Shown here in pieces: positions 24,716 through 44,671 of a stretch of DNA of 64,000 nt. Numbering within the stretch: the stretch's first letter is position 1; the number at the start of each line of letters is the position of its first letter. The stretch is from Lachnospiraceae bacterium (GTDB taxonomy: Bacteria > Bacillota > Clostridia > Lachnospirales > Lachnospiraceae). The position numbers were made by a program, and so were the translations under genes. The stretch is from contig CABIXN010000002.1 in assembly GCA_902362715.1 (NCBI GenBank), positions 496,001 to 560,000 on the forward strand. The letters are read 5' to 3'. The notes below the pieces were generated by a model. The model saw nothing but the letters and a program-made list of their open reading frames with translations. It searched no databases and was not told the DNA's origin.

Positions 24716-27208
24716 ATGGCAAGAGTAAGCGATATTGCAAGCGCAATTGAACCTTATGACAAAGTATGGGGTGTTGGTGCGTCAGGGTTTGTAAAAGATC
24801 CGTCACCATTTGAAAGGATTAATCTGATTCTTGATGACACAGAACGAACAACTAACGGAGAGGTATATGCGGATCGCTGTGTAATTATGACAAGAGTAAT
24901 GAAAGATATGCCGGGATATCCGCAGATTATTAAAAATGCAGAGGCCATGGCTGCGTTTTTCAGAGAAGCCCCCGTTCAGATTTACGATCATGAACTGATT
25001 GCAGGATCTATGCTGTGTCCGAAAAAAGGAGCTCCGGTCTTTCCTGAATTCGGCCTGAACTGGCTTATTGATGAGATGGAAAACGGACTTTTGGACTACA
25101 GCGAAAACAGAACCCATGATTACTTTCATTTCACAGAGGATTGCTATAAACAGTTAAAGGACTGTGAGGAATTCTGGGTTGGAAACTGTGCAGAGGATCG
25201 CCTCACGCCAAATCTTACCAAAGCGGAGATTGACGGATCTCATATGAATCATGGCATATTCTTCTGTGATTCCTATCTTACCTGCGGCGCAGGACATCTT
25301 GGCATTAATTATGACAGATTGTTAAAGATGGGATGGCGGGCTATCAAAGAAGAAATTGAAGAAAAGATGGCTGCTCTGGATCTTTCCGATCCGGAAGATA
25401 TCAAAAAAGAAACTTTCTATAAAGCAGCGTTAATTATGAACCAGGCTGCTACAGACTTTATAAAACGTCATGCAGAGGCTGCAAAAGACAAAGCAGCCCG
25501 GACACAGGATGAAACAAGAAAAGCGGAGCTGCTGAAAATCGCCGAAAACTGTGACTGGATCGCAACAGAGCCGCCCCGTACCTTCTATGAAGCAATCCAG
25601 GCCGTTGAATTTGCAAACGATATGGTATTGCTGGAATCCAACGGACACTCCATTTCTTATGGACGTTTTGACCAGTATATGTATCCGTTCTATCAGCACG
25701 ATATTGAAACAGGTGCGGCTACAAGAGAATTCTGCCAGGAACTGATAGAAAACTTCCATATTAAAATCTGGGAGAAAAATAAAGTTCGTAATCATATTGC
25801 CATTGATGTATTCGCAAATGGCGGCATCGGCGGGCCGGCTCTTACTGTAGGCGGCGTACTGGAAAACGGAAAAGACGGAACCAATGATCTGACATTTATG
25901 GTGCTGGATGCAGTGGCGCATACCCGTATACCTACCCCGTGGACAGCAGTACGGCTTCATGCAGGGACTCCGGAAAAACTGAAAGTGAAAACAGCAAACC
26001 TCATTCGTCTGGGACTTGGAGAACCGAAAATATTTAACGATGATGTAACGATCCCTTCTATGGTTGCCAATGGACGCTCTTTGGAAGATGCGAGAAACTA
26101 TCAGGTAGTTGGATGTGTAGAGCCGGATGTTACCGGAAAAGAGTATGGCTGGCATGACGCTGCATACTTTAACATTAATAAAGTTCTGGAGCTGGCGCTT
26201 AACGGCGGACGGGATATGGAAACAGGAGAGCAGTATGCCCCGGATTACGGTTCACTGGAAACTTTTACATCTTTTGAAGAAGTCAAAGAAGCGTATGTAA
26301 AACAAATGAAATACTGGGTAGATACAATGGTTGGCATGCTCAGTAAAATCGACCTGATCCATCAGGACATCAAACCTCTGCCATATCTTTCCAATCTGAT
26401 GGAGGGGCCTGTTGAAAAAGGTGTGGACGTAACAGCGGGAGGCGCCATTTATAACTTCTCCGGTCCTCAGGGAGTAGGAGTAGGATCTGTTGCAGACGCT
26501 CTTTCCACTATTAAACAGCTTGTCTTTGAAGAACAGAAAGTGACAGGAAAAGAGCTTTTGGATGCAGCGAAAGCAAACTGGGAAGGCTATGAGAAACTTT
26601 ATGCTTTGGTAAACTCCGATTATGTACATCATTACGGAAACGATGATGATTACGCAGACGATCTGGCATGCTTCGCTTTTGATACATACTGCGATGCGGT
26701 AAACGGTCATCCTACAGCTCACGGCGGACATTTTCAGGCGGGATTCTATTCTGTAGCTGTAAACGTAGCTCTGGGCGGAGCCCAGTGGGCATCCGTAGAA
26801 GGACGTAAATCCTTTGAACCGGTATCTGACTGTATGGGTGCACAGCACACCTTATGCTGCCCTCATGATATTAAAGGTCCAAGTGCAATCTGCAAATCCG
26901 TTACCAAAATTGACCACGGCAAAGCCGGAAACGGAACACTGCTGAACTGGAAGTTCTCTCCGGCAGCTTTAGAAGGGGACAGCGGACTGAATAATCTGAT
27001 TTCACTGATGGATACTTATGTACAGAGAAAAGGTATGCACAGCCAGTTTACAGTAGCAAGCAAAGAAACTTTACTGGATGCTCAGAAGAATCCGTCAGAA
27101 TACAAAGATCTTCTTGTTCGTGTGGCCGGATACAGCGCATACTTTGTAGAATTAAGTAAACAGCTTCAGGATGATATTATTGGAAGAACAGAATTGAACT
27201 TTGGTTAA
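24716..27208 (+). CDS. glycyl radical enzyme 2, glycerol/propanediol-dehydratase-like
   Basis: A second GRE, 830 aa, paralogous to the one at 14999 but well diverged. Cys467 and Glu469 lie in GCVEP, Asp481 in YGWHDAAYFN. NGHSISYGRFD and GAGHLGINY supply the hydroxyl-binding His and Ser residues. Gly805 in RVAGYSAYF is the radical site. Like GRE1 it keeps every residue expected of a diol dehydratase. AAAGGAGG precedes ATG 24716. It follows the glycerol dehydrogenase, and its activase is probably the unlinked one at 18667-19647. Retention of two complete dehydratases suggests different substrates or conditions. A perfect terminator follows. Confidence 0.88.
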   Translation: MARVSDIASAIEPYDKVWGVGASGFVKDPSPFERINLILDDTERTTNGEVYADRCVIMTRVMKDMPGYPQIIKNAEAMAAFFREAPVQIYDHELIAGSMLCPKKGAPVFPEFGLNWLIDEMENGLLDYSENRTHDYFHFTEDCYKQLKDCEEFWVGNCAEDRLTPNLTKAEIDGSHMNHGIFFCDSYLTCGAGHLGINYDRLLKMGWRAIKEEIEEKMAALDLSDPEDIKKETFYKAALIMNQAATDFIKRHAEAAKDKAARTQDETRKAELLKIAENCDWIATEPPRTFYEAIQAVEFANDMVLLESNGHSISYGRFDQYMYPFYQHDIETGAATREFCQELIENFHIKIWEKNKVRNHIAIDVFANGGIGGPALTVGGVLENGKDGTNDLTFMVLDAVAHTRIPTPWTAVRLHAGTPEKLKVKTANLIRLGLGEPKIFNDDVTIPSMVANGRSLEDARNYQVVGCVEPDVTGKEYGWHDAAYFNINKVLELALNGGRDMETGEQYAPDYGSLETFTSFEEVKEAYVKQMKYWVDTMVGMLSKIDLIHQDIKPLPYLSNLMEGPVEKGVDVTAGGAIYNFSGPQGVGVGSVADALSTIKQLVFEEQKVTGKELLDAAKANWEGYEKLYALVNSDYVHHYGNDDDYADDLACFAFDTYCDAVNGHPTAHGGHFQAGFYSVAVNVALGGAQWASVEGRKSFEPVSDCMGAQHTLCCPHDIKGPSAICKSVTKIDHGKAGNGTLLNWKFSPAALEGDSGLNNLISLMDTYVQRKGMHSQFTVASKETLLDAQKNPSEYKDLLVRVAGYSAYFVELSKQLQDDIIGRTELNFG

Positions 27209-30589: not shown

Positions 30590-30618
30590 GACGCCTGTAT
30601 CAAAGGGCGTCTTTTTTG
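30590..30618 (+). terminator. intrinsic terminator
   Basis: GACGCC (30590-30595) / GGCGTC (30606-30611) followed by six T. It ends the methyltransferase remnant just before the LysR-box promoter. Confidence 0.7.
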
Positions 30619-30685
30619 TTATAACTTTTTTACATAACCGTGCAAATTTTAAGAATTTCCCTTTAAAAAACCCCGATGCTATACT
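30618..30685 (+). promoter_or_regulatory. LysR-type promoter A (T-N11-A box and -10)
   Basis: GTTAT-N11-ATAACC (30618-30639) is a LysR-family T-N11-A dyad. The 27-bp block starting at ATAACC ends in AAGAATTTCC at 30660, and a -10 TATACT follows at 30680-30685 (19 nt). The same architecture occurs at 33002, 36380 and 37904. It drives the SDR/CoA-transferase pair. Confidence 0.65.
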
Positions 30686-30733
30686 GGCCATAGATTAAAA
30701 AACAAGAATTTAAAGAAAAGGAGAAATAAAATA

Positions 30734-31504
30734 ATGAGTAATTTATTTAACCTGGAAGGTAAGAGTGCAGTAGTTGTGGGCGGAGCAGGTGGTATCGGAC
30801 AGGCGATTGCCCAGGGACTGGCAGAAGCAGGAGCAAAAGTAGCCATTGCCAGCAGAAAAGAAGAGTCTTTACAGCGTGCTGTATCTGAAATCAAAGAAGC
30901 ATGCGGAGCAGACGTTACATATTATATTTGTGATGCTACAGATGAAGCACAGGTAGAAGCTATGGCAGAAAAGTCATTTGCTGATTTTGGAAAAGTAGAT
31001 ATTCTTGTATGCTCTCAGGGATTTAACAAAAAATTTGATGCAGAAGAATTCCCAATGGATGTATGGGATGACATGTTTAACGTAAACGTAAAAGGCGTTA
31101 TGATGTGCAATAAACATTTCGGCAAACGAATGAAAGCAAACGGCTACGGAAAAATCATTGATATCACTTCTGTAAGAAGCTGCATGGCTACATTCCCGAT
31201 GAAAGGAAATGCAGGATACTGTGCTACAAAAGGCGCTCTTGATATGGTAATCAGACAGTGTGCTGCTGAGTTTGGACCGGAAGTTACTGTAAACGGTATT
31301 GGACCTACAGTTACAATGACACCTATGATGGAAAGCATCGTTCCAGAAGCAGCAAAAGCAGGTATTGCAGCAAGCGTACCGCTTCAGAGAATGCAGGTTC
31401 CGGCAGACTGTGCAGGCCCGGCAGTGTTCCTTGCATCAGAAGCATCTGGTTTTGTGACAGGACAGATTCTCTACGTTGATGGCGGTCTTACAGCTATTGG
31501 CTAA
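30734..31504 (+). CDS. short-chain dehydrogenase/reductase, candidate phloroglucinol-type reductase
   Basis: A classical SDR of 256 aa. The cofactor loop is VVGGAGGIGQAIA (GXXXGXG-like), then VCSQG in place of NNAG, catalytic Ser in SVRS and YCATK (Ser-X12-Tyr-X3-Lys), ending TGQILYVDGG. AR/SRK after beta-2 (IASRKEE) suggests NADP preference. It is first gene of the LysR-boxed ring-cleavage cluster. By position and family it is a candidate for the NADPH-dependent reduction of an aromatic or dione ring. A role as a hydroxy-acid dehydrogenase is an equal alternative. Annotators would otherwise call it 3-oxoacyl-ACP reductase-like. Confidence 0.8.
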   Translation: MSNLFNLEGKSAVVVGGAGGIGQAIAQGLAEAGAKVAIASRKEESLQRAVSEIKEACGADVTYYICDATDEAQVEAMAEKSFADFGKVDILVCSQGFNKKFDAEEFPMDVWDDMFNVNVKGVMMCNKHFGKRMKANGYGKIIDITSVRSCMATFPMKGNAGYCATKGALDMVIRQCAAEFGPEVTVNGIGPTVTMTPMMESIVPEAAKAGIAASVPLQRMQVPADCAGPAVFLASEASGFVTGQILYVDGGLTAIG

Positions 31505-31551
31505 TAGATAGAATATTGGAAACAGTAAACACAGCAAGTGAGGAGAGAACT

Positions 31552-32862
31552 ATGAGTTGGAAAGAGGTATATGAAAGCAGAATTATGTCTGCTGAAGATG
31601 CATTAAAAAAAGTTCCCGCCAACAGCCGCATGTTTTTAGCCCATTCCATGAGTGAGCCTACATATCTGGTAGAATATATGTGCGATCATAAAGAATGGTT
31701 TACAAATGTAGAGATCTGCCACATGGGATCTAGCGGAAAGCACCGTTACTGCAATGAAGAAGGAATGGAAGGCCATTTAAGACATAATTCTTTCTTTGTC
31801 AGCGGTCTCAGCCGCCAGGCAGTTATGGATGGACGTGCGGACTATACGCCGGCTTACTTCCATGAGGTTCCGGGGATGCTTGAGGACGGAACAATTACCG
31901 TTGATACAGTAATGCTTACGATTACACCTCCAAATGAAAACGGAGAGGTAAGTCTTGGTCTGTCCTGTGATTATACCAGGGCCGCAGTGAAAAATGCGAA
32001 GCTGGTGATTGCGCAGGTAAATGATCAGTGGCCATTTACCATCAGTGACGGAGCACGTCTGAATGTGTCAGATATTGACTGTTTTGTACTGCACAATGAG
32101 CCAATTCCGGAGCTGAAACCAGGGCCTTTGACAGAAGTGGAAATTGGCATCGGAAAGAACTGTGCATCTCTGGTAGAAGACGGAGATACACTGCAGCTGG
32201 GGATCGGCTCTATTCCGGATGCAGTATGCGCATCTCTGGCAGATAAAAAGGATTTGGGGATACATACAGAATTGATGTGTGACGGTGTTATGAACTTGAT
32301 GAAGGCAGGTGTCATTAACAACAGAAAGAAATTGATTGATCCGGGTGTGGCTACAACTGCATTTATTATGGGAACCAGAGAGATGTATGATTTTGTAGAT
32401 CATAATCCTGAAATCAATATGCAGCCGGTGGATTACACCAATGATCCGGTGCGGATTTCTATGCTGGATCACATTGTAAGTATCAATTCTGCTGTACAGA
32501 TTGACTTTAACGGCCAGGTGTGCTCGGAATCTATTGGACTGATGCAGATCAGTGCTGTAGGCGGTCAGGTGGATTTTGTCCGGGGCGCAGCTATGGCGAA
32601 ACACGGTAAGGCCATTATTGCTATGCCCTCTTCTGTAAAAGGAAAGATATCTAAAATTGTTCCTGTATTGGACGAAGGGGCAGCAGTTACCACAAACAGG
32701 TGTGATGTGGATTATGTTGTTACAGAATATGGAATTGCCCATTTAAAGGGAAAAACCTTAAAGCAAAGAGCGAAAGCTTTGATTGAGATTTCCCATCCTA
32801 ACTTTAAGCCTGAATTAATAAAGGCATTTGAAGAGCGTTATCATTGCAGCTATGAATCATAA
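31552..32862 (+). CDS. acetyl-CoA hydrolase/transferase family CoA-transferase
   Basis: A CoA-transferase of 436 aa of the 4-hydroxybutyrate/butyryl-CoA:acetate type. It has GIHTELMCDGVM with the catalytic Glu that forms the acyl-glutamyl-CoA thioester, the oxyanion region LGIGSIPDAV, and INSAVQIDFNGQVCSESIG. ATG 31552 preceded by GAGGAGAG is preferred over the in-frame 31516 start. In the proposed pathway it would move CoA onto acetoacetate or another short acid released by the BKACE enzyme. It lies 47 nt after the SDR and ends before a strong terminator. Confidence 0.85.
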   Translation: MSWKEVYESRIMSAEDALKKVPANSRMFLAHSMSEPTYLVEYMCDHKEWFTNVEICHMGSSGKHRYCNEEGMEGHLRHNSFFVSGLSRQAVMDGRADYTPAYFHEVPGMLEDGTITVDTVMLTITPPNENGEVSLGLSCDYTRAAVKNAKLVIAQVNDQWPFTISDGARLNVSDIDCFVLHNEPIPELKPGPLTEVEIGIGKNCASLVEDGDTLQLGIGSIPDAVCASLADKKDLGIHTELMCDGVMNLMKAGVINNRKKLIDPGVATTAFIMGTREMYDFVDHNPEINMQPVDYTNDPVRISMLDHIVSINSAVQIDFNGQVCSESIGLMQISAVGGQVDFVRGAAMAKHGKAIIAMPSSVKGKISKIVPVLDEGAAVTTNRCDVDYVVTEYGIAHLKGKTLKQRAKALIEISHPNFKPELIKAFEERYHCSYES

Positions 32863-32936
32863 GTCAACAATTAACATAAAGTTAATAGTATAAAAACCAT
32901 TTAAAAACTCCTTTTAGTAAATTTGATTTTACAGGC

Positions 32937-32986
32937 CACAGCCAGACGAATGCATTTTGTGCAGCAGTCTGGCTGTGTGCTTTTTG
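32937..32986 (+). terminator. intrinsic terminator
   Basis: A perfect 11-bp stem CACAGCCAGAC (32937-32947) / GTCTGGCTGTG (32967-32977), then TGCTTTTTGG. Confidence 0.8.
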
Positions 32987-33001
32987 GAAGATGTCGGAAA
33001 T

Positions 33002-33070
33002 GGTTATGTTTTTTTTGTATAAGCACAGCAAAAAGGGGAATTTCAGTCAAAAAAACAATTATGGTATCCT
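33002..33070 (+). promoter_or_regulatory. LysR-type promoter D (T-N11-A box and -10)
   Basis: GGTTAT-N11-ATAAGC (33002-33024), GGGGAATTTCA ending at 33045, then a -10 TATCCT at 33065-33070 (19 nt). It is the most divergent of the four boxes and drives thiolase and hydroxyacid dehydrogenase. Confidence 0.6.
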
Positions 33071-33122
33071 AAAACCAGAAAAGAATGTTTTATGAAATTG
33101 AATGAACAGGAGGATATAAATA

Positions 33123-34283
33123 GTGAACAGAGAAGTAGTGATTGCTGCATATGGACGTTCCGCCGTATGCCGCGCAAGAAAAGGATCATTTGCGGGAACT
33201 CATCCAATTGAATATTCCGCACAGGTTTTAAAGGGTGTGCTGGATAAAATTCCACAGCTTAACCGGGCTGATATTGAGGATGTTATTATGGGATGTGCGG
33301 TTCAGCACTATAAAACATCTATGAATATTGCCAAAAGTGTTGTGGCAAGGGCAGAACTTCCGGAATGTGTGGCCGGACATACCATTAACCGTTTCTGCTC
33401 TTCAGGACTTCAGGCAATTGCCACAGCGGCTAACGCTATTGCTGCCGGCCAGGGAGATGTTATTGTTGCCGGAGGCGTGGAAGATATGTCGGGCACATTT
33501 GAACCTTATCCGGAAGAACATCAGGATACTTGGTTAAATGAACATGCACCGGGAGCTTATATGGCCATGGGAATTACAGCTGAAAATATTGTAAAAGACC
33601 GGGGACTTACAAGAGAAGAGATGGATCAGATGGCAGTGGAATCCCACCAGAAAGCTGCGAAAGCGCAGAAAGAGGGAAAACTGGCGCCTTCTATTATTCC
33701 GGTTAAAGTTATTGATCTGGAAGGAAATGAAAAAGTTGTTACAGAAGACGAAGGAATCCGTCCAAATACTTCTATGGAATCTCTGGCATCTTTAAAACCC
33801 TGCTTCATCCAGGAAACAGGAACGGTTACAGCGGCAACTTCTTCTCAGACTTCAGATGCAGCAGCGTTTGTAGTATTGATGGAAGCAGAGAAGGCAAAAG
33901 AACTTGGTATTAAACCAATCGCAAAGCTGAAAGCTTTTGCTGTGGCAGGCTGTGATGCAACTATGATGGGACTGGGACCAATTTACGCAGTGCCAAAAGC
34001 AATGGAGCGTGCGGGGCTTACCATTGATGATATGGATGTTATTGAGCTGAATGAGGCATTTGCAGCTCAGGCGATTCCTTGTATCAAAGAACTGCATATG
34101 AATCCGGATAAAGTGAATCCATACGGGGGAGCTATGGCTCTTGGTCATCCAATGGGAGCAACAGGAGCATTTCTTACCTGTAAAGCGCTGGATTATCTTC
34201 AGGATAACAACGGTAAATATGGTCTGGTTACAATGTGTATTGGCGGTGGAATGGGTGCAGCCGGAATATTTGAATTACTTTAA
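33123..34283 (+). CDS. acetyl-CoA acetyltransferase (thiolase)
   Basis: A thiolase of 386 aa that splits acetoacetyl-CoA with CoA into two acetyl-CoA, or the reverse. The nucleophilic Cys is in NRFCSSGLQA, with NEAFAAQ, GGAMALGHPMGATGA (His) and the second Cys in TMCIGGGMGAA, all at canonical positions. The start codon is GTG at 33123 with AGGAGGATATAA before it. Its role in the cluster would be the last step, delivering acetyl-CoA. It is co-transcribed with the dehydrogenase 44 nt downstream. Confidence 0.9.
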   Translation: MNREVVIAAYGRSAVCRARKGSFAGTHPIEYSAQVLKGVLDKIPQLNRADIEDVIMGCAVQHYKTSMNIAKSVVARAELPECVAGHTINRFCSSGLQAIATAANAIAAGQGDVIVAGGVEDMSGTFEPYPEEHQDTWLNEHAPGAYMAMGITAENIVKDRGLTREEMDQMAVESHQKAAKAQKEGKLAPSIIPVKVIDLEGNEKVVTEDEGIRPNTSMESLASLKPCFIQETGTVTAATSSQTSDAAAFVVLMEAEKAKELGIKPIAKLKAFAVAGCDATMMGLGPIYAVPKAMERAGLTIDDMDVIELNEAFAAQAIPCIKELHMNPDKVNPYGGAMALGHPMGATGAFLTCKALDYLQDNNGKYGLVTMCIGGGMGAAGIFELL

Positions 34284-34327
34284 TTGGTACATAACTATAA
34301 TCAGAGCATAAATGTGAGGTGTGGAGA

Positions 34328-35293
34328 ATGAAAATAGATGATATAAAACAGGTAGCCTCCATCGGCGGCGGTGTGATCGGCTCTAGCTGGACACTGCTGT
34401 TTGCCATGAGGGGATTGAAGGTTTACCAGTATGATATTAATGAAGAATGTATTCAGAAATGCGTGGAAAATATTGACCGAAACTTAAAGTCATTACTGGA
34501 ATTTCAGGCTGTGAAGGAAGAGGAAATTGAGACAATTAAAAGCCGTATTTCCTATACCACAAGTATTGCCGAGGCAGTAAAAGATGCAAAATTTATACAG
34601 GAAAACGGACCGGAGCGTCTGCCTGTAAAACAAAGCATTCTTGCTGAAATAGAGGCGGCTGCACCGGTGGATGCTATTTATGCCAGCAGTTCATCAGGAC
34701 TTTTGATCTCTGACGTAACTGCAAATGCAGTTCATCCAGAGCGCTGTATCGGAGGACATCCATATAACCCGCCGCATCTTATTCCGCTGGTAGAAATTAC
34801 ATACAGTGAAAAAACGGATTCTGCCAATGTTTTACTGGCAAAAGAGTTTTATCAGTCAATTGGGAAGGAAGCTGTGGTATTGAACAAAGAGTGCCCGGGA
34901 TATATTGCAAACCGGCTGCAGCTTGCCGTTTACCGGGAAATGATTGATCTGGTAATGCGGGGAATCTGTAATGCGGAAGATGCAGATAAAGCCCTGGTAT
35001 ATGGCCCCGGAATCCGCTGGGCAATTTTTGGACATAACATGATTATGCAGCTGGGAAATCCAGGCGGTTTAAAAGCAATGATGGAAATGCTTGGAGACGG
35101 CGGAGATGTATGGCTGGCTGATATGGCGGACTGGAAGCATATGCCAAATAAAGAATATGGCGAGATTGCTCAGGCGTCTGTTGATGAAATGATTCGGAAC
35201 TTCCCGGATGAGATTGGACACACCAATCCCGAAATTGCAAAATACCGGGATAAGATGCTGATTGAAATATTAAAGCTGCATCACAAATTTTAA
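34328..35293 (+). CDS. 3-hydroxyacyl-CoA dehydrogenase family, lambda-crystallin/carnitine-dehydrogenase-like 3-hydroxyacid dehydrogenase
   Basis: A protein of 321 aa with N-terminal Rossmann motif SIGGGVIGSSW, ENGPERLPVKQ, ASSSSG and GGHPYNPPHLIPLVEI. The NPPHLIPLVEI form is characteristic of L-gulonate 3-dehydrogenase (CRYL1) and L-carnitine dehydrogenase, which oxidise free 3-hydroxy acids, rather than of fadB/hbd acting on CoA esters. It would oxidise a 3-hydroxy acid to the 3-keto acid that the BKACE enzyme needs. In the phloroglucinol model the substrate is 3-hydroxy-5-oxohexanoate. ATG 34328 is chosen (GTGAGG upstream). Confidence 0.82.
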   Translation: MKIDDIKQVASIGGGVIGSSWTLLFAMRGLKVYQYDINEECIQKCVENIDRNLKSLLEFQAVKEEEIETIKSRISYTTSIAEAVKDAKFIQENGPERLPVKQSILAEIEAAAPVDAIYASSSSGLLISDVTANAVHPERCIGGHPYNPPHLIPLVEITYSEKTDSANVLLAKEFYQSIGKEAVVLNKECPGYIANRLQLAVYREMIDLVMRGICNAEDADKALVYGPGIRWAIFGHNMIMQLGNPGGLKAMMEMLGDGGDVWLADMADWKHMPNKEYGEIAQASVDEMIRNFPDEIGHTNPEIAKYRDKMLIEILKLHHKF

Positions 35294-35369
35294 GTGACCG
35301 AGCAAGGCGAGGGATACTTCTTGTCCGGAGGCAGGAAGGTAGTAGTTAGATAACTTTGAAGTTAAAAGG

Positions 35370-35406
35370 TGCTCTGCATTGATTTCGTTCATGCGGAGCA
35401 TTTTTG
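35370..35406 (+). terminator. intrinsic terminator
   Basis: TGCTCTGCAT (35370-35379) / ATGCGGAGCA (35391-35400), one G-T pair, then TTTTTG. The repeat element begins at the very end of this T-run. Confidence 0.75.
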
Positions 35407-35543
35407 CTCTATAGAATATACCGTGTTGTGATAAAGCTGAAGAGTACCGATTCCTATAGAGCAAAAAAACGCTCCGCTGTGGATCGCACTGCGGCAGAGT
35501 GAAATCATGCTGCTTGTACAACCCGCCGCAGGATTCTTTTTTA
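35406..35543 (+). repeat. terminator-associated palindromic repeat, copy 1 (3' part truncated)
   Basis: It opens GCTCTATAG and after ~45 nt closes TTCCTATAGAGC, followed by the CGCTCCGCTG...GCGGCAGAG block and CCGCCGCAGGATTCTTTTTT. It shares long near-identical stretches with 50406-50563 and 52257-52412. The left arm of the final hairpin is missing here (deletion before GGATTC). It fills most of the 273-nt gap before the SDR gene at 35567. Confidence 0.85.
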
Positions 35544-35566
35544 TGCTATAGAAATGGAGGAAGAAA

Positions 35567-36355
35567 ATGGATAAAAAGCAGTGGCCGGTAAAAGTGCCGG
35601 ATTATGATTTTGTAGGAAAAACAGTTGTAGTTACAGGAAGTACCAAAGGCATCGGAAAGGCGATTGCCATGGCCTATGCCCGCTGTCATGCCAGTGTGGT
35701 GATTTCCGGCAGAAGTCAGGAGGAATGCAGCAGGGTTGCTCAGGAAATCAGAAATCTGGGAGGAATTGCAGAAGGAATCCGCGCGGATGTGCAGAAATTA
35801 AATGAGATTGTCTGGCTGAGAGATCAGGCCCAGCAAAAGCTGGGACCGGTGGCAGTCTGGATTAACTGTGCAGGTACTGCCATAACAAAAAAGATTCTGG
35901 ATGTAACAGAAGAGGATTATGATCTGGTAATGAATACAAATTTTAAAAGCGTGTATTTCTCTTCCCAGATGGCAGCCCAGAAGATGGCGGAACAAAAAAA
36001 CGGCGGAAAAATTATTCAGATTGCTTCCGTAGGAGGATTAAAGGGTTCTAATGGATTATCTTTGTATGGGGCGTCCAAAGCAGCCGTTATTAATCTGACC
36101 AAAACTATGGCAATGGAATGGAGCCGTTATGGGATTCAGGTAAATGCCATCTGCCCGGGATATGTAGAAACAGAAATTAACAAAGCTGTGTTTGAAAATG
36201 AGACATTTAAAGACAGCGTAATCAAGACGATTCCTCAGAGACGGCTGGGGACAGTAGATGAGATAGCAGCCATTGCACTGTTTTTAGGCTCCGATCTGTC
36301 CGGTATGATCAATGGTGAAGCAATTGTAGCAGATATGGGAGCCATATGCGGCTGA
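35567..36355 (+). CDS. short-chain dehydrogenase/reductase (second SDR of the cluster)
   Basis: A classical SDR of 262 aa. It has VVTGSTKGIGKAIA, NCAG, SVGGLKGSNGLSLYGASK (Ser, Tyr, Lys catalytic triad) and CPGYVETEINKA. SGRSQEE after the second strand suggests NADPH. It is separated from the dehydrogenase upstream by a terminator and the repeat element, so it has its own or a read-through promoter. It could be the ring reductase or a second ketone/alcohol step. Substrate cannot be read from sequence. Confidence 0.8.
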   Translation: MDKKQWPVKVPDYDFVGKTVVVTGSTKGIGKAIAMAYARCHASVVISGRSQEECSRVAQEIRNLGGIAEGIRADVQKLNEIVWLRDQAQQKLGPVAVWINCAGTAITKKILDVTEEDYDLVMNTNFKSVYFSSQMAAQKMAEQKNGGKIIQIASVGGLKGSNGLSLYGASKAAVINLTKTMAMEWSRYGIQVNAICPGYVETEINKAVFENETFKDSVIKTIPQRRLGTVDEIAAIALFLGSDLSGMINGEAIVADMGAICG

Positions 36356-36379
36356 TTTGTGTAAAAAACAGATTTGAAT

Positions 36380-36448
36380 GGTTATGATTTTTTTGTATAA
36401 CCGTCAGGAAAATGAGAATTTCCATTCTTATGGACGATTTGTTATAGT
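36380..36448 (+). promoter_or_regulatory. LysR-type promoter C (T-N11-A box and -10)
   Basis: GGTTAT-N11-ATAACC (36380-36402) is the most perfect dyad of the four. It is followed by GAGAATTTCC ending at 36423 and a -10 TATAGT at 36443-36448 (19 nt). The next plus-strand gene, BKACE, starts 440 nt later, so the transcript would run antisense to the small gene 36472-36795. Confidence 0.65.
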
Positions 36449-36471
36449 CTGCTTAACACAGGATGCGGCCG

Positions 36472-36795
36472 TTAATTTTTTCGGTTAAGAAGTTCCTTTG
36501 TGACCATTAAAATCCAGTCTTTTACTTTCTGGATTTCTGCCTCTGATAATGGAGCAGGGTCATAATAAAAACTGCAGCCGTCGTAAGGGCTTTCACTGCT
36601 GGTACGAATCAGGATCCCGTCCTTTTTCAGATAGCCGCCCACACACATAGAATCCACGCTGTAACCGGAGTCTTCGGGCTTTAGAAGCTCTTCAATAATC
36701 TGATTCATCAGGTAGAAGTCTTCTTCTCCAGAGCAGCCGTTTAGATTAACCAGTATACATCCGTTTTTCATTTTGTATTCATCAAATAATTCCAT
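36472..36795 (-). CDS. hypothetical protein
   Basis: A small acidic protein of 107 aa on the opposite strand inside the ring-cleavage cluster. ATG 36795 has GGAGGG upstream and the codon use looks ordinary, so it is probably real. It has Cys residues in NGCILVNLNGCSGEEDF and SMCVGG and a C-terminal helix (SEAEIQKVKDWILMVTKELL). No membrane segment, HTH or known motif was recognised. It lies between the LysR-type promoter C and the BKACE gene, which may affect both. No function assigned. Confidence 0.6.
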   Translation of the reverse strand: MELFDEYKMKNGCILVNLNGCSGEEDFYLMNQIIEELLKPEDSGYSVDSMCVGGYLKKDGILIRTSSESPYDGCSFYYDPAPLSEAEIQKVKDWILMVTKELLNRKN

Positions 36796-36893
36796 GTCGT
36801 TCCCTCCTGTAGTGAATGTGTGGAAAGTATAACACAGATTTTATGAATGTCAAATCTAAAAATAAAAATTAATTCCCGAAAGGAGATCTTATT

Positions 36894-37901
36894 ATGGCAA
36901 AAACTATTATTACAGCGGCTCTCACCGGCGCGATTACCCCTCATGGATATGATGTTCCGGAAACACCGGAGGAAATCGCCAAAGCAGCTTATGAATGCTG
37001 GAAGGAAGGAGCAGCTATCGTACATCTTCACATGCGTGATGATGCCGGGGCAGGCGTTATGGATCCTGTAAAATTTTACGAGACAATTAAATTAATACGG
37101 ACCAATTATCCGGACTGTGATGTAATTGTAAACTGTACTTCGTCAGGAGATAACCGTGTTTCTGATGACTCTCCTTATGGGAATGCAGTAAGAATGCTTC
37201 ACCATGGAAACGTACCGGGAATTGAAATGGGAACTTTTGATGCCGGTTCTTTTAACTGGGGAATCCCAGGAGGAATTTTCAGTAACTCTCCTACTTTTTT
37301 AACAAATCTTGGAAACCTGTACCAGGAAAAGAATATTAAACCGGAATTTGAAGTGTTTGATCTGGGGATGATCCGGGCAGTTGGCGTTTACTGGAAAAAA
37401 GGAATTGTAAAAGCACCTCTTCATTTTCAGCTCTGTCTGGGGGTTGTAGGAGGTATGGCGGCTACTCCAAGAGATGTACAGGAAATGCTTTCTTACATCC
37501 AGCGACTGCAGTCTGAAGGAAATCTTCCTGAGGAAATTACTTGGTCTGCCTTCGGAATCGGAAAAGGACATCTGCCGGTTATGTTTTCTGCCCTGGCGAA
37601 TGATGGTCATATTCGTGTGGGTATGGAAGATAACGTGGTATACGGAAGAGATAAAGATGGCAAAAAAATTCTGGCAACAAATCTGATGCTTGTAAAACGG
37701 GCTGTGAAAGCGGTAGAAGCTTATGGAAACGAAGTGGCAACTTCAGCTGAAGCCCGCAAGATGCTGGGATTAGAGCCTCTGGATCATGAGGCTGTTGTAA
37801 AAGCACTGGAAGAAATCAGTGTAGAGCAACTAGAAGCAGCGAAGACAGAAGCCGGAGAAAAATACGGAACAACTTATTTCGCAGCGAAAAGTATGGGGTA
37901 A
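36894..37901 (+). CDS. beta-keto acid cleavage enzyme (BKACE, DUF849)
   Basis: A TIM-barrel enzyme of 335 aa that condenses a beta-keto acid with acetyl-CoA to give acetoacetate and a new acyl-CoA. The zinc site HLHMRD (His44, His46) matches His46/His48 of 3-keto-5-aminohexanoate cleavage enzyme; the third ligand is probably Glu of GMEDNVVYG. It is somewhat longer than typical members (~275-310 aa). In the phloroglucinol scheme its role would be triacetate (3,5-dioxohexanoate) acetoacetate-lyase, yielding acetoacetate and acetoacetyl-CoA. Dehydrocarnitine cleavage is the other well-known reaction next to this type of dehydrogenase. AAAGGAGA precedes the start. Confidence 0.85.
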   Translation: MAKTIITAALTGAITPHGYDVPETPEEIAKAAYECWKEGAAIVHLHMRDDAGAGVMDPVKFYETIKLIRTNYPDCDVIVNCTSSGDNRVSDDSPYGNAVRMLHHGNVPGIEMGTFDAGSFNWGIPGGIFSNSPTFLTNLGNLYQEKNIKPEFEVFDLGMIRAVGVYWKKGIVKAPLHFQLCLGVVGGMAATPRDVQEMLSYIQRLQSEGNLPEEITWSAFGIGKGHLPVMFSALANDGHIRVGMEDNVVYGRDKDGKKILATNLMLVKRAVKAVEAYGNEVATSAEARKMLGLEPLDHEAVVKALEEISVEQLEAAKTEAGEKYGTTYFAAKSMG

Positions 37902-37903
37902 AC

Positions 37904-37973
37904 GGTAATAACTTTTTGACATAACCGTTCAAATTTTGAGAATTTCCATTTGCAGTCAGGTGGATGATATACT
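37904..37973 (+). promoter_or_regulatory. LysR-type promoter B (T-N11-A box and -10)
   Basis: GGTAAT-N11-ATAACC (37904-37926), GAGAATTTCC ending at 37947, and a -10 TATACT at 37968-37973 (20 nt). It overlaps the sequence directly after the BKACE stop and drives the beta-diketone hydrolase-like gene. Confidence 0.65.
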
Positions 37974-38025
37974 CAAAACCAGATAGAGAAGAACTACATA
38001 ATGAAATTTCAGGAGGAAAAATATT

Positions 38026-39057
38026 ATGGCAAACGAAAAAAACAAACCTATGGCACCTTATGCCAAATTACCGGAACTTGAAGAGTATGGCGCATGGTTT
38101 AAAGACTTTGCAGATCTTTACCGTGAAGATGGAATCCTTCAGGTAACATGGAAAACAAATGACGGCCCGATGCATCACAGCGGAATGTCTCACCGTGCAA
38201 TTGGACAGCTGGTAAGAATGCTTTCTCTGGACTTTAAAAATGAAATTATCATTTTTACACATATCGGTGACAGCTGGATGACAGAGTCTGATCCTAACGG
38301 CTGGGAGACATATTCTGAACTGCCTACAGAGCGTTTCCAGCATCAGTATTTTGATGACACAAACCTGATCAAAAATATGATTTTTGACCTTGATGTTCCT
38401 ACAATTGGTGCAATTCCAGGATCCGGTTTCCATTGGGATTCTGCAATGCTTAGTGATGTAACAATTGCTTCTGAGGATACATGGATGGAAGTACCTCATG
38501 CCCACGGCGGATTAGTACCTGGTGATGCAATGGGACTTATGGCGCAGCATTATTTTGGAACAAAACGCGGCAATTATTACATGATGACAACACGTCAGTG
38601 GACAGCTCAGCAGATGCTTGACTGGGGAATGGTAAGTGAAGTAGTACCAAAAGACAAAGTTATGGATCGTGCATGGGAAATTGCCCGTATGTGGAAAACA
38701 ATGTCTTATGAAAACCGTACAATCATGTCCAATCTTGCAAAACGTCCGTTAAAGAAACTGCTTGTAGAAGATCTGAAATTACATACAGTCAGCGAGCAGT
38801 ATGGTTCTTTACTTCGTATTGCAGCAGGAGATCTGGGAGATCAGAATTCCGGTCAGCAGGATGAAAAATATATCAGCCGTACCAATGACTGGCGTTATAC
38901 ATTTGATTATATGCAGCAGCCTCAGAACTGTGAGACATGGGCAAAGTTCCGTACAGAGCCTATCGAGTGGTTCAAAAAAGTAGAAGCGGGCGAAGCTGAA
39001 AATCCATATGAAGTAAAACCGGTAAAACCATATCGTCCGGCACCGGCAGATAAATAG
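38026..39057 (+). CDS. crotonase-fold beta-diketone hydrolase, 6-oxocamphor-hydrolase-like
   Basis: A protein of 343 aa that generic annotation would call enoyl-CoA hydratase. Set against 6-oxocamphor hydrolase (OCH) as I recall it, the OCH catalytic residues His45, His122, His145, Asp154 and Glu244 all have partners at matching spacing: His56 (GMSHRAI), His136 (GSGFHWDS), His158 and Asp167 (VPHAHGGLVPGD) and Glu257 (TVSEQYG). OCH opens cyclic beta-diketones by a retro-Claisen hydrolysis without CoA. Here the likely job is opening a cyclohexane-1,3-dione-type ring to a 5-oxo acid. An extra C-terminal tail of ~80 residues (basic/Pro-rich end) is not in OCH. It has its own LysR-type promoter. 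Confidence 0.78.
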   Translation: MANEKNKPMAPYAKLPELEEYGAWFKDFADLYREDGILQVTWKTNDGPMHHSGMSHRAIGQLVRMLSLDFKNEIIIFTHIGDSWMTESDPNGWETYSELPTERFQHQYFDDTNLIKNMIFDLDVPTIGAIPGSGFHWDSAMLSDVTIASEDTWMEVPHAHGGLVPGDAMGLMAQHYFGTKRGNYYMMTTRQWTAQQMLDWGMVSEVVPKDKVMDRAWEIARMWKTMSYENRTIMSNLAKRPLKKLLVEDLKLHTVSEQYGSLLRIAAGDLGDQNSGQQDEKYISRTNDWRYTFDYMQQPQNCETWAKFRTEPIEWFKKVEAGEAENPYEVKPVKPYRPAPADK

Positions 39058-39183: not shown

Positions 39184-40032
39184 TTAAGTTAGCCGTAATG
39201 TCCAGAATTTTTGTCTGTTATCATTAAGAACCATTTTTCCGGATTCTAGTGCACTTTGCGGAGGGGTTCTGTAAATACCTCTGCGGCTGATCCAGGGGGA
39301 ACCGGATTTTTTTAAGATAATCATGGATTCTAATAACTGAAGGGAAACGGATAAAACATCCATAATGGGAACCTGATCAATTTGTGTCAGACCATGAGGC
39401 TGGGAGTTCTCACAGCCGGGGGCAATCCGCAGTGCAGGGGACATCAGGCCGCAGCAGGGAATCAAAATTTCAGCGCCCTGATTAATTAGAGGTTTTCCAG
39501 CTGTAATAAAACTATCTATAGTTTCAGATGCATGAATAAGTCCTTCTGGCTGTTTTTGAGGAGGCTCCGGTGTAGCTTGAATACCGGCACAGAAATCTTT
39601 CAGACCTAATATATTTACTTTGTGCCAGGTTTCATGAATATTTGCTTCTGAAATAACCACAAGACCAAATTTTTTAGCCATAATTGCTGCCATGTACAGG
39701 GAAGCTTCACCAATACTGATAACGGGAATATTTACAAGACTTCTGATCTGATCAAGCATAGGATCGCCAAAACAAGTAATCAGGATACCGTCAAACCCTT
39801 CCTTTTCCGCTGAGAGACAGGATTGCAGTACTGCCTGGGAATTTAAGAGATCAATTGCCGGATAAAAAAAGCCTTCCATGCCAATAATCCCCCAGTCACT
39901 AAATTTTGAAAAAATTTCTGTGTCAGGACGTCTTACTAAATTAAAATTTTCCTTCCAGATTTTTGAAAGATGATTAACAGCAAAATCATCATTTTCTTTA
40001 GCAATGGCAACGTTGGCCAGCATGATTTTCAT
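39184..40032 (-). CDS. Asp/Glu/hydantoin racemase superfamily protein
   Basis: A protein of 282 aa with the two-Cys layout of this superfamily: Cys in LITCFGDPMLDQ and a Cys pair in ILIPCCGLMSP, plus the N-terminal strand MLANVAIAKEND. Relatives racemise amino acids or hydantoins, isomerise maleate, or decarboxylate arylmalonates, all by deprotonating a carbon alpha to a carboxylate. Between the hydrolase and a LysR regulator it may isomerise or decarboxylate an acid intermediate. It is longer than Asp racemase (~230 aa). CAGAAAGGGG precedes ATG 40032. Confidence 0.75.
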   Translation of the reverse strand: MKIMLANVAIAKENDDFAVNHLSKIWKENFNLVRRPDTEIFSKFSDWGIIGMEGFFYPAIDLLNSQAVLQSCLSAEKEGFDGILITCFGDPMLDQIRSLVNIPVISIGEASLYMAAIMAKKFGLVVISEANIHETWHKVNILGLKDFCAGIQATPEPPQKQPEGLIHASETIDSFITAGKPLINQGAEILIPCCGLMSPALRIAPGCENSQPHGLTQIDQVPIMDVLSVSLQLLESMIILKKSGSPWISRRGIYRTPPQSALESGKMVLNDNRQKFWTLRLT

Positions 40033-40163: not shown

Positions 40164-41066
40164 TCAATGGGAAACATTATGATTTAAAATCTGTTCAAAT
40201 AAGAAAACTGCCGGATTTGAGGTATCTTTTTTAAAACGAGCGACGATCTCTACCCGGGAATCCTTATCCAGATCTATAAAGGTGAGTCCCGGATTTATTT
40301 CGCAGCAGCACTTTGGAAAAAAGGTAATTCCCATTCCGGCACTAACAAGCATCAGAGCAGATTCAACGTCTGAAGTATATGTTGTTATGTTGGGGATAAA
40401 CCCGGTTTTCTGACAATCACGTATCATTGCCTTAAAGGTATATTCGCTGATTTTGGGATTGACAAAAATCACCGGATCATTGGAGAATACATTTCGTTTT
40501 ACCTTTCTTTTCCCGGACAGATAGTGGTCCTGGGGAAGAACGGCGCAGATTGGTTCGCTGGAAACAATTTTTTCAGTAATTGTTTCTGTATGAAATGGTT
40601 CAAAGCTGATTGTAAAAATAAGATCTAATTTATTTGTCTCAAGCTTTTGGCTGAGGTTTTGAATGGAATCCTGTATCAGAGTAATCTGAATATCTGGATG
40701 CTGTTCCCGGAATTTACGGATGAGCTCTGGCAGGATTTTTTTTTCGTGCAGTCCCTGAAAACCGATTGTTAAAATGCCGGTACATCCATTTTCGATCTGC
40801 CAGGCGTTGGCTACAGCCTGAGAGAAATTAGTCAGAAGATGTCTGGCATCTGCATAAAAGGATTTTCCGCTTTCGGTCAAGGCTACATAATGCCTGGTTC
40901 GTTTAAACAGTTTCAGCCCCAGCTGGCGTTCTATATTTATAATATTCTGGCTCATAGCCGTCTGGGCAATGTGATTTTTTTCAGCAGCTTTTGTGAAGCT
41001 CAGGCATTCGGCCGCGTCAATAAAATACTGCAGCTGTCTAAGATGAATATAATGATTATAATCCAA
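40164..41066 (-). CDS. LysR family transcriptional regulator
   Basis: A regulator of 300 aa. The N-terminal winged HTH (HLRQLQYFIDAAECLSFTKA, HIAQTAMSQNIINIERQLG, LKLFKR) is followed by a periplasmic-binding-like effector domain (ILTIGFQGLHEKKILPELI). It is divergent from the LysR gene at 41311 across a 244-nt gap and next to the catabolic cluster. It is a candidate activator at the four T-N11-A promoters. Which of the two LysR proteins binds them is unknown. Confidence 0.88.
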   Translation of the reverse strand: MDYNHYIHLRQLQYFIDAAECLSFTKAAEKNHIAQTAMSQNIINIERQLGLKLFKRTRHYVALTESGKSFYADARHLLTNFSQAVANAWQIENGCTGILTIGFQGLHEKKILPELIRKFREQHPDIQITLIQDSIQNLSQKLETNKLDLIFTISFEPFHTETITEKIVSSEPICAVLPQDHYLSGKRKVKRNVFSNDPVIFVNPKISEYTFKAMIRDCQKTGFIPNITTYTSDVESALMLVSAGMGITFFPKCCCEINPGLTFIDLDKDSRVEIVARFKKDTSNPAVFLFEQILNHNVSH

Positions 41067-43675: not shown

Positions 43676-44016
43676 TTTCCTTCTCCCTTCTATTACAAGT
43701 TTATTTGTGCCCACAGCAGATCAGTTCATTTTCCTGCGACTCCTTTCTTTGGCAGATGTGCTGTGAATCACTGCCTTGTGTTTTTATGATGTACTTATCA
43801 TAACAGCCGTTTTTGACGTTTGTAAAAACGGATATTTAGAACCCTGGTTCTAAAAAATAGATTCTGAGCTTTTCTGAAATGTAAAGTCCTTTCGTATGGG
43901 GATTTGAGGTCCGGTAAGAAGAAAAACTTCTGTCAGAAACCAAAAAGTCATGTTTGTCGTATGAGATTCAGATGCTTTACAATTCAGGAAAAGAAAGAGA
44001 AATGGAGGGCTGTATT
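43676..44016. promoter_or_regulatory. divergent regulatory region with two palindromes
   Basis: This 341-nt gap separates the permease (minus) from the Mo-enzyme operon (plus). It contains CCGTTTTT / AAAAACGG (43807-43814 / 43824-43831) and a 14-bp palindrome AGAACCCTGGTTCT (43838-43851), both plausible operators. No T-N11-A box of the type seen in the ring-cleavage cluster was found. No gene is visible in the gap. Confidence 0.45.
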
Positions 44017-44661: not shown

Positions 44662-44671
44662 GGAGGCTGCT

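What the first reader, a model, noticed from the sequence alone, without database searches (positions are those of the whole stretch)
30618..39057. Candidate complete anaerobic pathway for a 1,3-dioxygenated ring (phloroglucinol type)
Directly seen: SDR, CoA-transferase, thiolase, lambda-crystallin-type 3-hydroxyacid dehydrogenase, second SDR, BKACE and a 6-oxocamphor-hydrolase-like protein, in one block under four similar promoters. Known: anaerobic phloroglucinol breakdown runs through ring reduction (SDR), hydrolysis of dihydrophloroglucinol to 3-hydroxy-5-oxohexanoate, oxidation to triacetate, and a BKACE-family triacetate acetoacetate-lyase giving acetoacetate + acetoacetyl-CoA, then thiolysis. 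Inferred: every step has a gene here, net three acetyl-CoA units. It could serve flavonoid or gallate-derived phloroglucinol in the gut, or a relative such as a resorcinol- or inositol-derived dione.
Basis: partly seen in the sequence, partly recalled or inferred. Interest (0 to 1): 0.88.

Follow-up and report, generated by a model that had tools for sequence, protein, structure and literature searches.

The report
Phloroglucinol-like ring pathway with different ring-opener
A gut-type bacterium carries a co-regulated set of genes that looks like the known anaerobic breakdown pathway for the plant-derived ring compound phloroglucinol, but with an unrelated ring-opening enzyme and its own enzyme lineages, so it may eat a related ring whose identity can now be tested.

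Summary
In detail: seven genes (SDR1, CoA-transferase, thiolase, lambda-crystallin-type dehydrogenase HAD, SDR2, BKACE, 6-oxocamphor-hydrolase-like OCH) at 30734-39057, with four copies of a 46-bp operator/promoter block that scores nowhere else in the window and recurs in relatives. OCH models as a beta-diketone hydrolase with its catalytic residues kept; SDR1 shares two unusual motifs with phloroglucinol reductases; HAD lacks CoA-contact residues, as the known triacetate-forming dehydrogenase does. SDR1/OCH/HAD/BKACE/thiolase recur together, once as a compact run in a distant relative.
But it is not the known pathway. Ring opening is by a crotonase-fold enzyme, not the Mn 'cyclase' DPGC, and HAD and BKACE form clades apart from the phloroglucinol enzymes. 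Nine of 12 OCH-bearing genomes that I picked also carry DPGC, including that of the most complete close relative of this cluster. The likeliest reading is a parallel pathway for a phloroglucinol relative; an isofunctional second phloroglucinol route is the main rival. The ring is not identified. A second variant replaces HAD/BKACE with an ADC-like protein plus malonate-semialdehyde dehydrogenase, which fits a 3-hydroxy-5-oxo-acid product of OCH. New variant of a known kind.

The parts
30617..30662 (+). operator/promoter block copy 1, upstream of SDR1-CoA-transferase
   Evidence: PWM 63.4 bits; leave-one-out 44.3 vs random maximum 13.4
30734..31504 (+). SDR1, short-chain dehydrogenase with phloroglucinol-reductase-like motifs (inferred ring reductase)
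   Evidence: Pfam PF13561; GxN[KR] and SxR motifs shared with phloroglucinol reductases
31516..32862 (+). 4-hydroxybutyrate/butyryl-CoA:acetate-type CoA-transferase (inferred acetoacetate activation)
   Evidence: PDB 3gk7 E 2e-132; TIGR03948 E 1e-89, below curated cutoff
33002..33047 (+). operator/promoter block copy 2, upstream of thiolase-HAD (the weakest copy)
   Evidence: PWM 53.1 bits; leave-one-out 16.4 vs random maximum 12.2
33123..34283 (+). acetyl-CoA C-acyltransferase (thiolase)
   Evidence: TIGR01930 E 1e-125, over cutoff
34319..35293 (+). HAD, lambda-crystallin/3-hydroxyacyl dehydrogenase family, inferred dehydrogenase of a free 3-hydroxy acid
   Evidence: PF02737; PDB 3f3s lambda-crystallin homolog E 1.2e-39; Lys56 equivalent is Ala64 in the alignment, Asn221 equivalent is Gly231 by extrapolation one residue past it (roles)
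35567..36355 (+). SDR2, ordinary-type short-chain dehydrogenase, role open
   Evidence: PF13561; canonical NCAG motif and neither shared motif
36380..36425 (+). operator/promoter block copy 3, upstream of BKACE, reading across the minus-strand ORF
   Evidence: PWM 63.1 bits; leave-one-out 44.2 vs random maximum 21.3
36472..36795 (-). 107-aa ORF of unknown family; a relative lies near BKACE in Coprococcus catus (L006) and, recognised by eye, in L159
   Evidence: no Pfam match; 60% relative in L006; L159 sequence
36894..37901 (+). BKACE, beta-keto acid cleavage enzyme with TGAITP at the position of KCE Glu14
   Evidence: PF05853 E 1.8e-81; PDB 2y7d KCE E 1.6e-43; clade apart from triacetate lyases
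37904..37949 (+). operator/promoter block copy 4, upstream of OCH
   Evidence: PWM 64.0 bits; leave-one-out 47.6 vs random maximum 19.0
38026..39057 (+). OCH, crotonase-fold beta-diketone hydrolase (inferred retro-Claisen ring opener)
   Evidence: PDB 2j5g E 6e-33 and 1o8u E 1.6e-26; AF2 mean pLDDT 82, Foldseek top hits 1o8u/2j5g; H136, H158, D167 kept in 76 of 76 aligned relatives
40164..41066 (-). LysR-type regulator, candidate (not shown) regulator of the four operators
   Evidence: PF03466/PF00126
41311..42207 (+). second LysR-type regulator, relation to the cluster open
   Evidence: NCBIfam LysR-family models

Best explanation
A co-regulated anaerobic pathway that dearomatises and opens a meta-polyhydroxylated six-membered ring of the phloroglucinol type. 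Steps, all inferred from homology and context: (1) SDR1 reduces the enolised ring to a 5-hydroxycyclohexane-1,3-dione; (2) OCH hydrolyses a C-C bond next to one carbonyl, within the 1,3-dione (retro-Claisen), to a 3-hydroxy-5-oxo acid; (3) HAD oxidises the free acid to a 3,5-dioxo acid; (4) BKACE reacts it with acetyl-CoA to acetoacetate and a 3-oxoacyl-CoA; (5) the CoA-transferase activates acetoacetate and thiolase cleaves the 3-oxoacyl-CoAs. It works like the known phloroglucinol pathway, with a non-homologous ring opener, and more likely acts on a relative of phloroglucinol (for example a hydroxylated or otherwise substituted one) than on phloroglucinol itself, because many carriers keep a separate DPGC. 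Shown: genes, operators, conserved module, conserved catalytic residues, separate clades. Not shown: any reaction, any substrate.
For: OCH: best structural matches are 6-oxocamphor hydrolase and Anabaena beta-diketone hydrolase; catalytic residues kept in 76 of 76. SDR1: G/R-x-N-K/R after the NxAG position and S-x-R at the catalytic serine are in 22 of 22 SDR1-group proteins (one, L083, read in the alignment); of 7 phloroglucinol reductases 6 have the first (L082 has GFNA) and 7 the second; 0 of 10 other SDRs in the loci have both. In three whole genomes 19 of 23 SDR places could be read: the 2 SDR1s and 3 reductases have both motifs, 0 of 13 other full-length SDRs do (3 of the 13 are SDR2s already counted). 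All 11 loci with a certain cupin also have SDR1; a related cupin sits beside phloroglucinol reductase in L135 and, by eye, in L081. In L111 an SDR1 relative stands two genes before a pyrogallol hydroxytransferase homologue (4v4c, E 1.8e-262), same strand. Module: SDR1-OCH-thiolase-BKACE-HAD plus a butyrate-kinase-like gene in L171 at 36-55% identity; SDR1-HAD-BKACE triads in L160, L162, L163. Of 29 OCH-bearing genomes BKACE matched in 27 and HAD in 22; the two without BKACE, which also lack HAD, are G006 and G008, which have an ADC-like protein plus MSDH beside OCH (MSDH over cutoff for the G008 protein). Of 67 loci, 7 have ADC and none of these has BKACE or HAD (Fisher p 0.04). Operator block above 22 bits in six relatives.
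Against: I found no assay of any enzyme of this module, so ring, stereochemistry and cofactor are guesses. SDR1 is only 30-34% identical to phloroglucinol reductases. Several OCH clusters (for example F. plautii, L057) show no SDR1, and an SDR1 match at E <= 1e-75 was found in only 8 of 29 OCH-bearing genomes, so the upstream step varies. Many OCH copies stand alone or with only a LysR and another CoA-transferase. The BKACE of the L171 run is as close to triacetate lyases (55-56%) as to OCH-cluster BKACEs (up to 55%). SDR2 has no assigned step. OCH and DPGC go together unevenly: 6 of 21 OCH genomes vs 41 of 279 others in one family (p 0.11), 3 of 4 vs 18 of 393 in another (p 0.0005); without genomes known beforehand 3 of 17 and 2 of 3, combined z 1.6.
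Confidence: 0.55

Rival explanations
1. Phloroglucinol itself is the substrate: OCH is a non-homologous isofunctional replacement of DPGC and this is a second, perhaps differently regulated, phloroglucinol route.
For: Every step of the published pathway has a counterpart of the right reaction type. Two OCH-bearing genomes, Olsenella profusa (G008) and Propionibacterium australiense (G006), gave no PF04199 cyclase match yet have cupin-SDR1-OCH. In the family of G001, 15 of 21 close-OCH genomes had no DPGC match. The L171 BKACE is as close to triacetate lyases as to OCH-cluster BKACEs.
Against: 9 of 12 OCH genomes that I picked carry DPGC, 6 of them with reductase, TfD and TAL in the same stretch. 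HAD and BKACE are in clades of their own; the KCE-Glu14 position reads TGA[IVM] in 21 of 21 OCH-cluster BKACEs of 240 aa or more and TGAW in 5 of 5 triacetate lyases in the tree. No anticorrelation of OCH with DPGC.
Confidence: 0.25
2. The ring is alicyclic, not aromatic: the SDRs oxidise a cyclitol or deoxycyclitol to a cyclic 1,3-dione, which OCH opens.
For: Two SDRs in the cluster; SDR1's best NCBIfam match is a gluconate 5-dehydrogenase model, below cutoff; SDR2 has ordinary SDR motifs.
Against: SDR1 shares motifs and a cupin partner with phloroglucinol reductase; an SDR1 relative sits near a pyrogallol hydroxytransferase homologue; known BKACE substrates are 2-unsubstituted 3-oxo acids, which polyhydroxylated rings would not give (recalled family knowledge). 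The described gut inositol-to-propionate pathway names other genes (passages).
Confidence: 0.15
3. OCH acts on an acyclic or bicyclic beta-diketone and the other genes serve a general 3-hydroxy acid catabolism.
For: Known OCH relatives accept bicyclic and monocyclic diketones (recalled); many OCH genes stand alone.
Against: The shared operator and the recurrence of SDR1, HAD, BKACE and OCH across distant carriers.
Confidence: 0.05

Closest known systems
Anaerobic phloroglucinol pathway of Clostridium scatologenes (PGR-DPGC-TfD-TAL; PMC10470551)
   Same: Same order of reaction types: SDR, ring hydrolase, 3-hydroxy acid dehydrogenase of the 3HCDH family, BKACE, thiolase, CoA-transferase; HAD lacks a CoA-contact residue as TfD does; cupin beside the reductase in some clusters.
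   Different: Ring opener is a crotonase-fold beta-diketone hydrolase, not the Mn-dependent cyclase-family DPGC; against DPGC-cluster enzymes of relatives SDR1 is 30-34%, HAD 30-36% and BKACE 43-48% identical, HAD and BKACE in separate clades; the residue that is Trp in TAL is Ile.
6-oxocamphor hydrolase (1o8u) and Anabaena beta-diketone hydrolase (2j5g)
   Same: Fold, catalytic His/His/Asp, inferred retro-Claisen hydrolysis of a cyclic 1,3-diketone.
   Different: 25-31% identity; about 80 extra residues, mostly C-terminal; at the position aligned with Trp40 of 6-oxocamphor hydrolase (numbering recalled) His in 72 of 76 relatives, Trp in 3, a gap in 1, so a more polar pocket is expected; found in anaerobes beside SDR/HAD/BKACE.
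[quoted passage not shown]
   Same: BKACE fold family; HxH and a Glu conserved in the alignment.
   Different: Glu14, reported to bind the 5-amino group, is Ile here, so the lysine-fermentation substrate is unlikely.
Lambda-crystallin / L-gulonate 3-dehydrogenase (function recalled) and carnitine dehydrogenase
   Same: 3HCDH-type dehydrogenases of free 3-hydroxy acids.
   Different: Carnitine dehydrogenase models score far below cutoff.

Membership tests
Known anaerobic phloroglucinol pathway | Phloroglucinol reductase of the PGR clade | tested here: not met
   SDR1 is 30-34% identical and in a separate clade, though it shares two motifs
Known anaerobic phloroglucinol pathway | Mn-dependent cyclase-family DPGC with Trp20/Tyr22 | tested here: not met
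   No DPGC match in the 64-kb window; OCH is of another fold. The rest of the organism's genome could not be searched
Known anaerobic phloroglucinol pathway | Dehydrogenase lacking HBD Lys56/Asn221 but keeping Ser117/His138/Asn188 | tested here: met
   Ala64; Gly231 by extrapolation; Ser126, His147 and the Asn kept (alignment; roles)
Known anaerobic phloroglucinol pathway | Dehydrogenase within the TfD clade | tested here: not met
   Separate clade
Known anaerobic phloroglucinol pathway | TAL with Trp16 in place of KCE Glu14 | tested here: not met
   Ile in the window; TGA[IVM] in 21 of 21 OCH-cluster BKACEs of 240 aa or more (23 in the family, 2 short pieces left out), TGAW in 5 of 5 TALs in the tree (of 6 found) and in L091
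Known anaerobic phloroglucinol pathway | Thiolase and acetoacetate CoA-transferase in the cluster | tested here: met
   Thiolase over cutoff; a CoA-transferase, but of a different family from CtfAB and with untested substrate
Known anaerobic phloroglucinol pathway | Turnover of phloroglucinol, dihydrophloroglucinol and triacetate | not testable with these tools
   Needs purified proteins
6-oxocamphor hydrolase / beta-diketone hydrolase subfamily of crotonases | Fold closest to 1o8u/2j5g | tested here: met
   Top 12 Foldseek rows are 1o8u, 1szo, 2j5g, 2j5s chains; TM normalised by target 0.86-0.90
6-oxocamphor hydrolase / beta-diketone hydrolase subfamily of crotonases | His122, His145, Asp154 equivalents | tested here: met
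   76 of 76 sequences, aligned to 1o8u; roles of His145 and Asp154 recalled
6-oxocamphor hydrolase / beta-diketone hydrolase subfamily of crotonases | Hydrolysis of a cyclic 1,3-diketone | not testable with these tools
   Needs an assay
BKACE family (PF05853) | Over Pfam cutoff | tested here: met
   273.9 bits vs 24.8
Lysine-fermentation KCE | Glu14 and NF052387 cutoff 382 bits | tested here: not met
   Ile at the position; 218.8 bits. Control: the two TALs tested reach neither the KCE nor the 3,5-dioxohexanoate cutoff, so these cutoffs do not separate the groups
Carnitine dehydrogenase | NF005716/NF005471 cutoffs | tested here: not met
   194.9 vs 592 and 192 vs 414 bits

The most novel reading that the evidence does not exclude
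A previously undescribed class of anaerobic ring-opening pathway, carried by gut Bacillota (human, chicken, ruminant sources among the record titles) and a few Actinomycetota and Spirochaetota, that ferments a polyhydroxybenzene other than phloroglucinol (for example 1,2,3,5-tetrahydroxybenzene, as might come from 6-hydroxylated flavones) through a crotonase-fold retro-Claisenase. It has two alternative downstream branches from the same 3-hydroxy-5-oxo acid: oxidation plus BKACE, or an ADC-family retro-aldolase giving malonate semialdehyde for MSDH.
Probability: 0.3. Interest if true: 0.85.

Novelty: new variant of a known kind. Interest (0 to 1): 0.64.

Why it matters
Few anaerobic ring-opening enzymes for polyphenols are known, and phloroglucinol is the best-described gut example. 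A second ring opener of a different fold, present in common gut genera and, where a source names it, called only 'enoyl-CoA hydratase', would extend which dietary rings can be fermented to short-chain acids. Surveys that look for DPGC would not see this route. It also makes a clear set of assays possible: OCH on hydroxylated cyclohexane-1,3-diones, SDR1 on trihydroxy- and tetrahydroxybenzenes.

Tried and rejected
Canonical phloroglucinol pathway: rejected as a membership claim (no DPGC in the window, separate clades), kept as 'works like'. Gut inositol-to-propionate pathway of Anaerostipes: passages read, other genes named, rejected. Riboflavin degradation by Lachnospiraceae: abstract and outline seen, the genes named there do not match, rejected. 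Carnitine or lysine route: below cutoffs and Glu14 replaced. Obligate OCH1/OCH2 heteromer: the tree shows two paralogue clades, but by my reading only about 11 of 21 close-OCH genomes have both, so not claimed. Link of the window's molybdopterin oxidoreductase (44600-47332) to the pathway: 27-29% over about 250-280 residues to those beside SDR1 in L111 and 22% to the pyrogallol hydroxytransferase homologue, and no operator block before it, not claimed. NCBIfam cutoffs as a specificity test: dropped, because the two control triacetate lyases fail them too. A whole-genome test in the window's own organism was impossible: none is held. A 44-base pattern of the operator gave 0 hits with up to 3 mismatches; a 20-base core gave 3 of the 4 sites (the OCH copy missed); the PWM gave all four. 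An operator pattern search in six relatives hit in 3 of them, 7 hits, against 3 hits of the reversed control pattern; one G009 hit (1 mismatch) lies between a transporter-cupin run and a divergent PTE-family gene; the weaker hits are not used. The first motif regex missed three SDR1s and one reductase and let GFNA pass; could not read several loci; both were redone and the numbers given are from there.

Papers: PMC10470551, abstract, Results parts 1 and 2 of 3, the section on presence in diverse bacteria, Discussion, and passages; PMC8355322, passages; PMC12934955, abstract and outline; all others search listings only. That I know of no paper on this OCH module rests on these searches, chiefly 45 ('oxocamphor hydrolase', one unrelated paper), 46 and 89; one search matched too many papers to tell, and subscription journals are mostly not held.

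Full report
What is there. The seven genes are intact and in the order described, with families confirmed by profile searches and for four of them by PDB sequence search. The gaps upstream of SDR1, thiolase and OCH, and the gap after SDR2, each carry a copy of one 46-bp block, consensus GGTTATnAnTTTTTTnnATAACCGTnnnAAnnnTGAGAATTTCCnT. The four copies score 53-64 bits and the fifth-best place in the window 5.3. The weakest copy (before thiolase) scores 16.4 when left out of its own matrix, against a maximum of 12.2 in 60 random sequences. The inverted GTTAT/ATAAC arms look like a LysR-type box (recalled), and two LysR genes follow the cluster, but which protein binds is not shown. Among the 125 loci then held, the block scores above 22 bits in six relatives (L048, L011, L019, L006, L025, L066; L097 is the same place as L011). 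By the gene maps it lies upstream of OCH in L048, of SDR1 in L011 and L019 and of thiolase in L006; in L025 and L066 it lies in the gap before OCH but on the other strand. Hits of 13-16 bits in L049, L065 and others are within the range of random maxima and are not counted.

The ring opener. OCH matches Anabaena beta-diketone hydrolase (E 6e-33) and 6-oxocamphor hydrolase (1.6e-26). Its AlphaFold model (mean pLDDT 82) has these as its top 12 Foldseek rows, TM-score by target 0.86-0.90. Equivalents of His122, His145 and Asp154 are kept in 76 of 76 family members; the position aligned with Trp40 is His in 72, Trp in 3 divergent ones, a gap in 1. A scan of species genomes gave 67 loci with OCH genes (best-segment identity 54-91%); by record title they are mostly Oscillospiraceae, Flavonifractor-like and Lachnospiraceae, also Olsenella profusa, Propionibacterium australiense and a Treponema. 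A protein search gave 531 relatives at E <= 1e-20, of which the best 120 were listed; the few with a name are called enoyl-CoA hydratase.

The module. In the 67 loci, 21 have BKACE, 21 HAD, 17 both; 18 thiolase, 17 SDR1, 14 a CoA-transferase of this family, 15 CtfA (families; short contigs included). Genomes in which OCH stands apart often have HAD and BKACE elsewhere: of 29 OCH-bearing genomes (the 12 I picked plus 17), BKACE matched in 27 (E <= 1e-60) and HAD in 22 (E <= 1e-70). Such hits include TAL-type BKACEs, but by my reading the best hit is at least 53% identical in all 27. SDR1-HAD-BKACE triads are seen in L160, L162 and L163. L171 holds SDR1-like (49%), OCH-like (36%), thiolase, BKACE, HAD (43%) and a butyrate-kinase-like gene (named by eye) on one strand in about 6 kb, with the catalytic His/His/Asp of OCH, the GVNK motif of SDR1 and TGAV in BKACE. 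Its BKACE is as near to triacetate lyases (55-56%) as to the nearest OCH-cluster BKACE (55%), so it does not by itself settle the clade question.

Why phloroglucinol-like. SDR1 and phloroglucinol reductases share two motifs. All 22 SDR1-group proteins have G/R-x-N-K/R and S-x-R (L083 read from the alignment); of 7 reductases 6 have the first (L082 reads GFNA) and 7 the second; 0 of 5 SDR2-type and 0 of 5 other SDRs of the loci have both (correcting). In three whole genomes 19 of 23 SDR places were readable: both motifs in the 2 SDR1s and 3 reductases, in 0 of 13 other full-length SDRs, three of which are SDR2s already counted. The reductase of L081 matches PDB 5g4k/5g4l over its length; that these are the published phloroglucinol reductase structures is recalled. 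All 11 loci with the cupin also have SDR1, and a 42%-identical cupin lies next to the reductase in L135. In L111 an SDR1 relative (60%) follows two cyclase-family genes and is followed by a molybdopterin oxidoreductase and then by a protein that matches pyrogallol hydroxytransferase over nearly its whole length, all on one strand. HAD has Ala where CoA-dependent HBDs have Lys56 and, extrapolating one residue past that alignment, Gly for Asn221: the same losses were used to recognise TfD as a free-acid enzyme.

Why not simply phloroglucinol. Of 12 OCH genomes that I picked from those behind the 67 loci, 10 have a PF04199 match and 9 a DPGC (77-95% to that of L080, itself one of the nine). Six show reductase, TfD, DPGC and TAL together (L080, L082, L085, L087, L088, L089); L081 shows three before its contig ends; the stretches L084 and L086 show reductase and DPGC only. 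L081 belongs to the same genome as L011, the most complete close relative of the window's cluster (SDR1 91%, thiolase 91%, CoA-transferase 85%, HAD 84%, OCH 82%, SDR2 64%, BKACE only 50%). DPGC Trp20/Tyr22 are visible in the four that I read (L080, L081, L082, L085). In trees, BKACEs of OCH clusters (21 of 21 TGA[IVM]) separate from TALs (5 of 5 TGAW) and HADs from TfDs. Association tests: 6 of 21 vs 41 of 279 (p 0.11) and 3 of 4 vs 18 of 393 (p 0.0005); combined z 3.3, falling to 1.6 when genomes known beforehand are left out. So OCH does not replace DPGC across genomes; if anything they go together. But most OCH genomes in the first family have no DPGC match, which leaves room for the rival. 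One genome (G065) has a DPGC, the SDR1-cyclase-hydroxytransferase run and the L171 run, three parallel sets.

Two downstream branches. Olsenella (L022), Propionibacterium (L015), L031 and Treponema L038 have cupin, SDR1, an ADC-like protein, an aldehyde dehydrogenase of one family and OCH; the Olsenella dehydrogenase is a CoA-acylating (methyl)malonate-semialdehyde dehydrogenase (TIGR01722, 533 bits, cutoff 448.5). None of the 7 ADC loci has BKACE or HAD (p 0.04), and G006 and G008, the two whole genomes of this branch that were searched, lack BKACE and HAD matches. A 3-hydroxy-5-oxo acid explains both branches: oxidise and cleave with BKACE, or retro-aldol to malonate semialdehyde and a ketone. 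The retro-aldol role of the ADC-like protein is inference; the lysine that forms the Schiff base in ADC (recalled) appears conserved in the alignment.

Judgement. The chemistry type is likely (0.55), the ring is open. I lean to a relative of phloroglucinol over phloroglucinol itself; 1,2,3,5-tetrahydroxybenzene is only an example that fits the 5-hydroxy-1,3-dione requirement, with no direct evidence.

Noticed in passing
window 14999-17503 and 24716-27208: Two glycyl-radical enzymes near the (2S)-3-sulfopropanediol dehydratase model (969 and 955 bits, cutoff 1000), with an activase, aldehyde dehydrogenase, phosphotransacylase, MFS transporter and Fe-alcohol dehydrogenase between them.
   Followed up: partly
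window 43954-48515: Fe-S protein, molybdopterin oxidoreductase (910 aa) and FAD/NAD oxidoreductase in a row, all below the cutoffs of the NCBIfam models they match; substrate unknown.
   Followed up: partly
window 39184-40032 (-): Asp/Glu/hydantoin-racemase-family protein beside the cluster; no relative listed in the 67 OCH loci at the thresholds used.
   Followed up: no
L057 3497-5036, L003, L007, L009 and others: A DUF362 protein followed by a small unnamed protein recurs in OCH clusters of Flavonifractor-type genomes; role unknown.
   Followed up: no
L006 13924-14901, L007 13062-14015, L133 11271-12254: Phosphotriesterase-family (lactonase-like) proteins accompany OCH clusters; perhaps they reopen lactones of the 3-hydroxy-5-oxo or 3,5-dioxo acid.
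   Followed up: partly
L111 3501-16254: Two further molybdopterin oxidoreductases and several cyclase-like proteins around an SDR1 relative and a pyrogallol hydroxytransferase homologue: possibly another polyhydroxybenzene route.
   Followed up: partly
L032-L036, L054: OCH2-clade genes stand next to ribosomal-protein-like genes (rplM/rpsI, named by eye) without other module genes.
   Followed up: no
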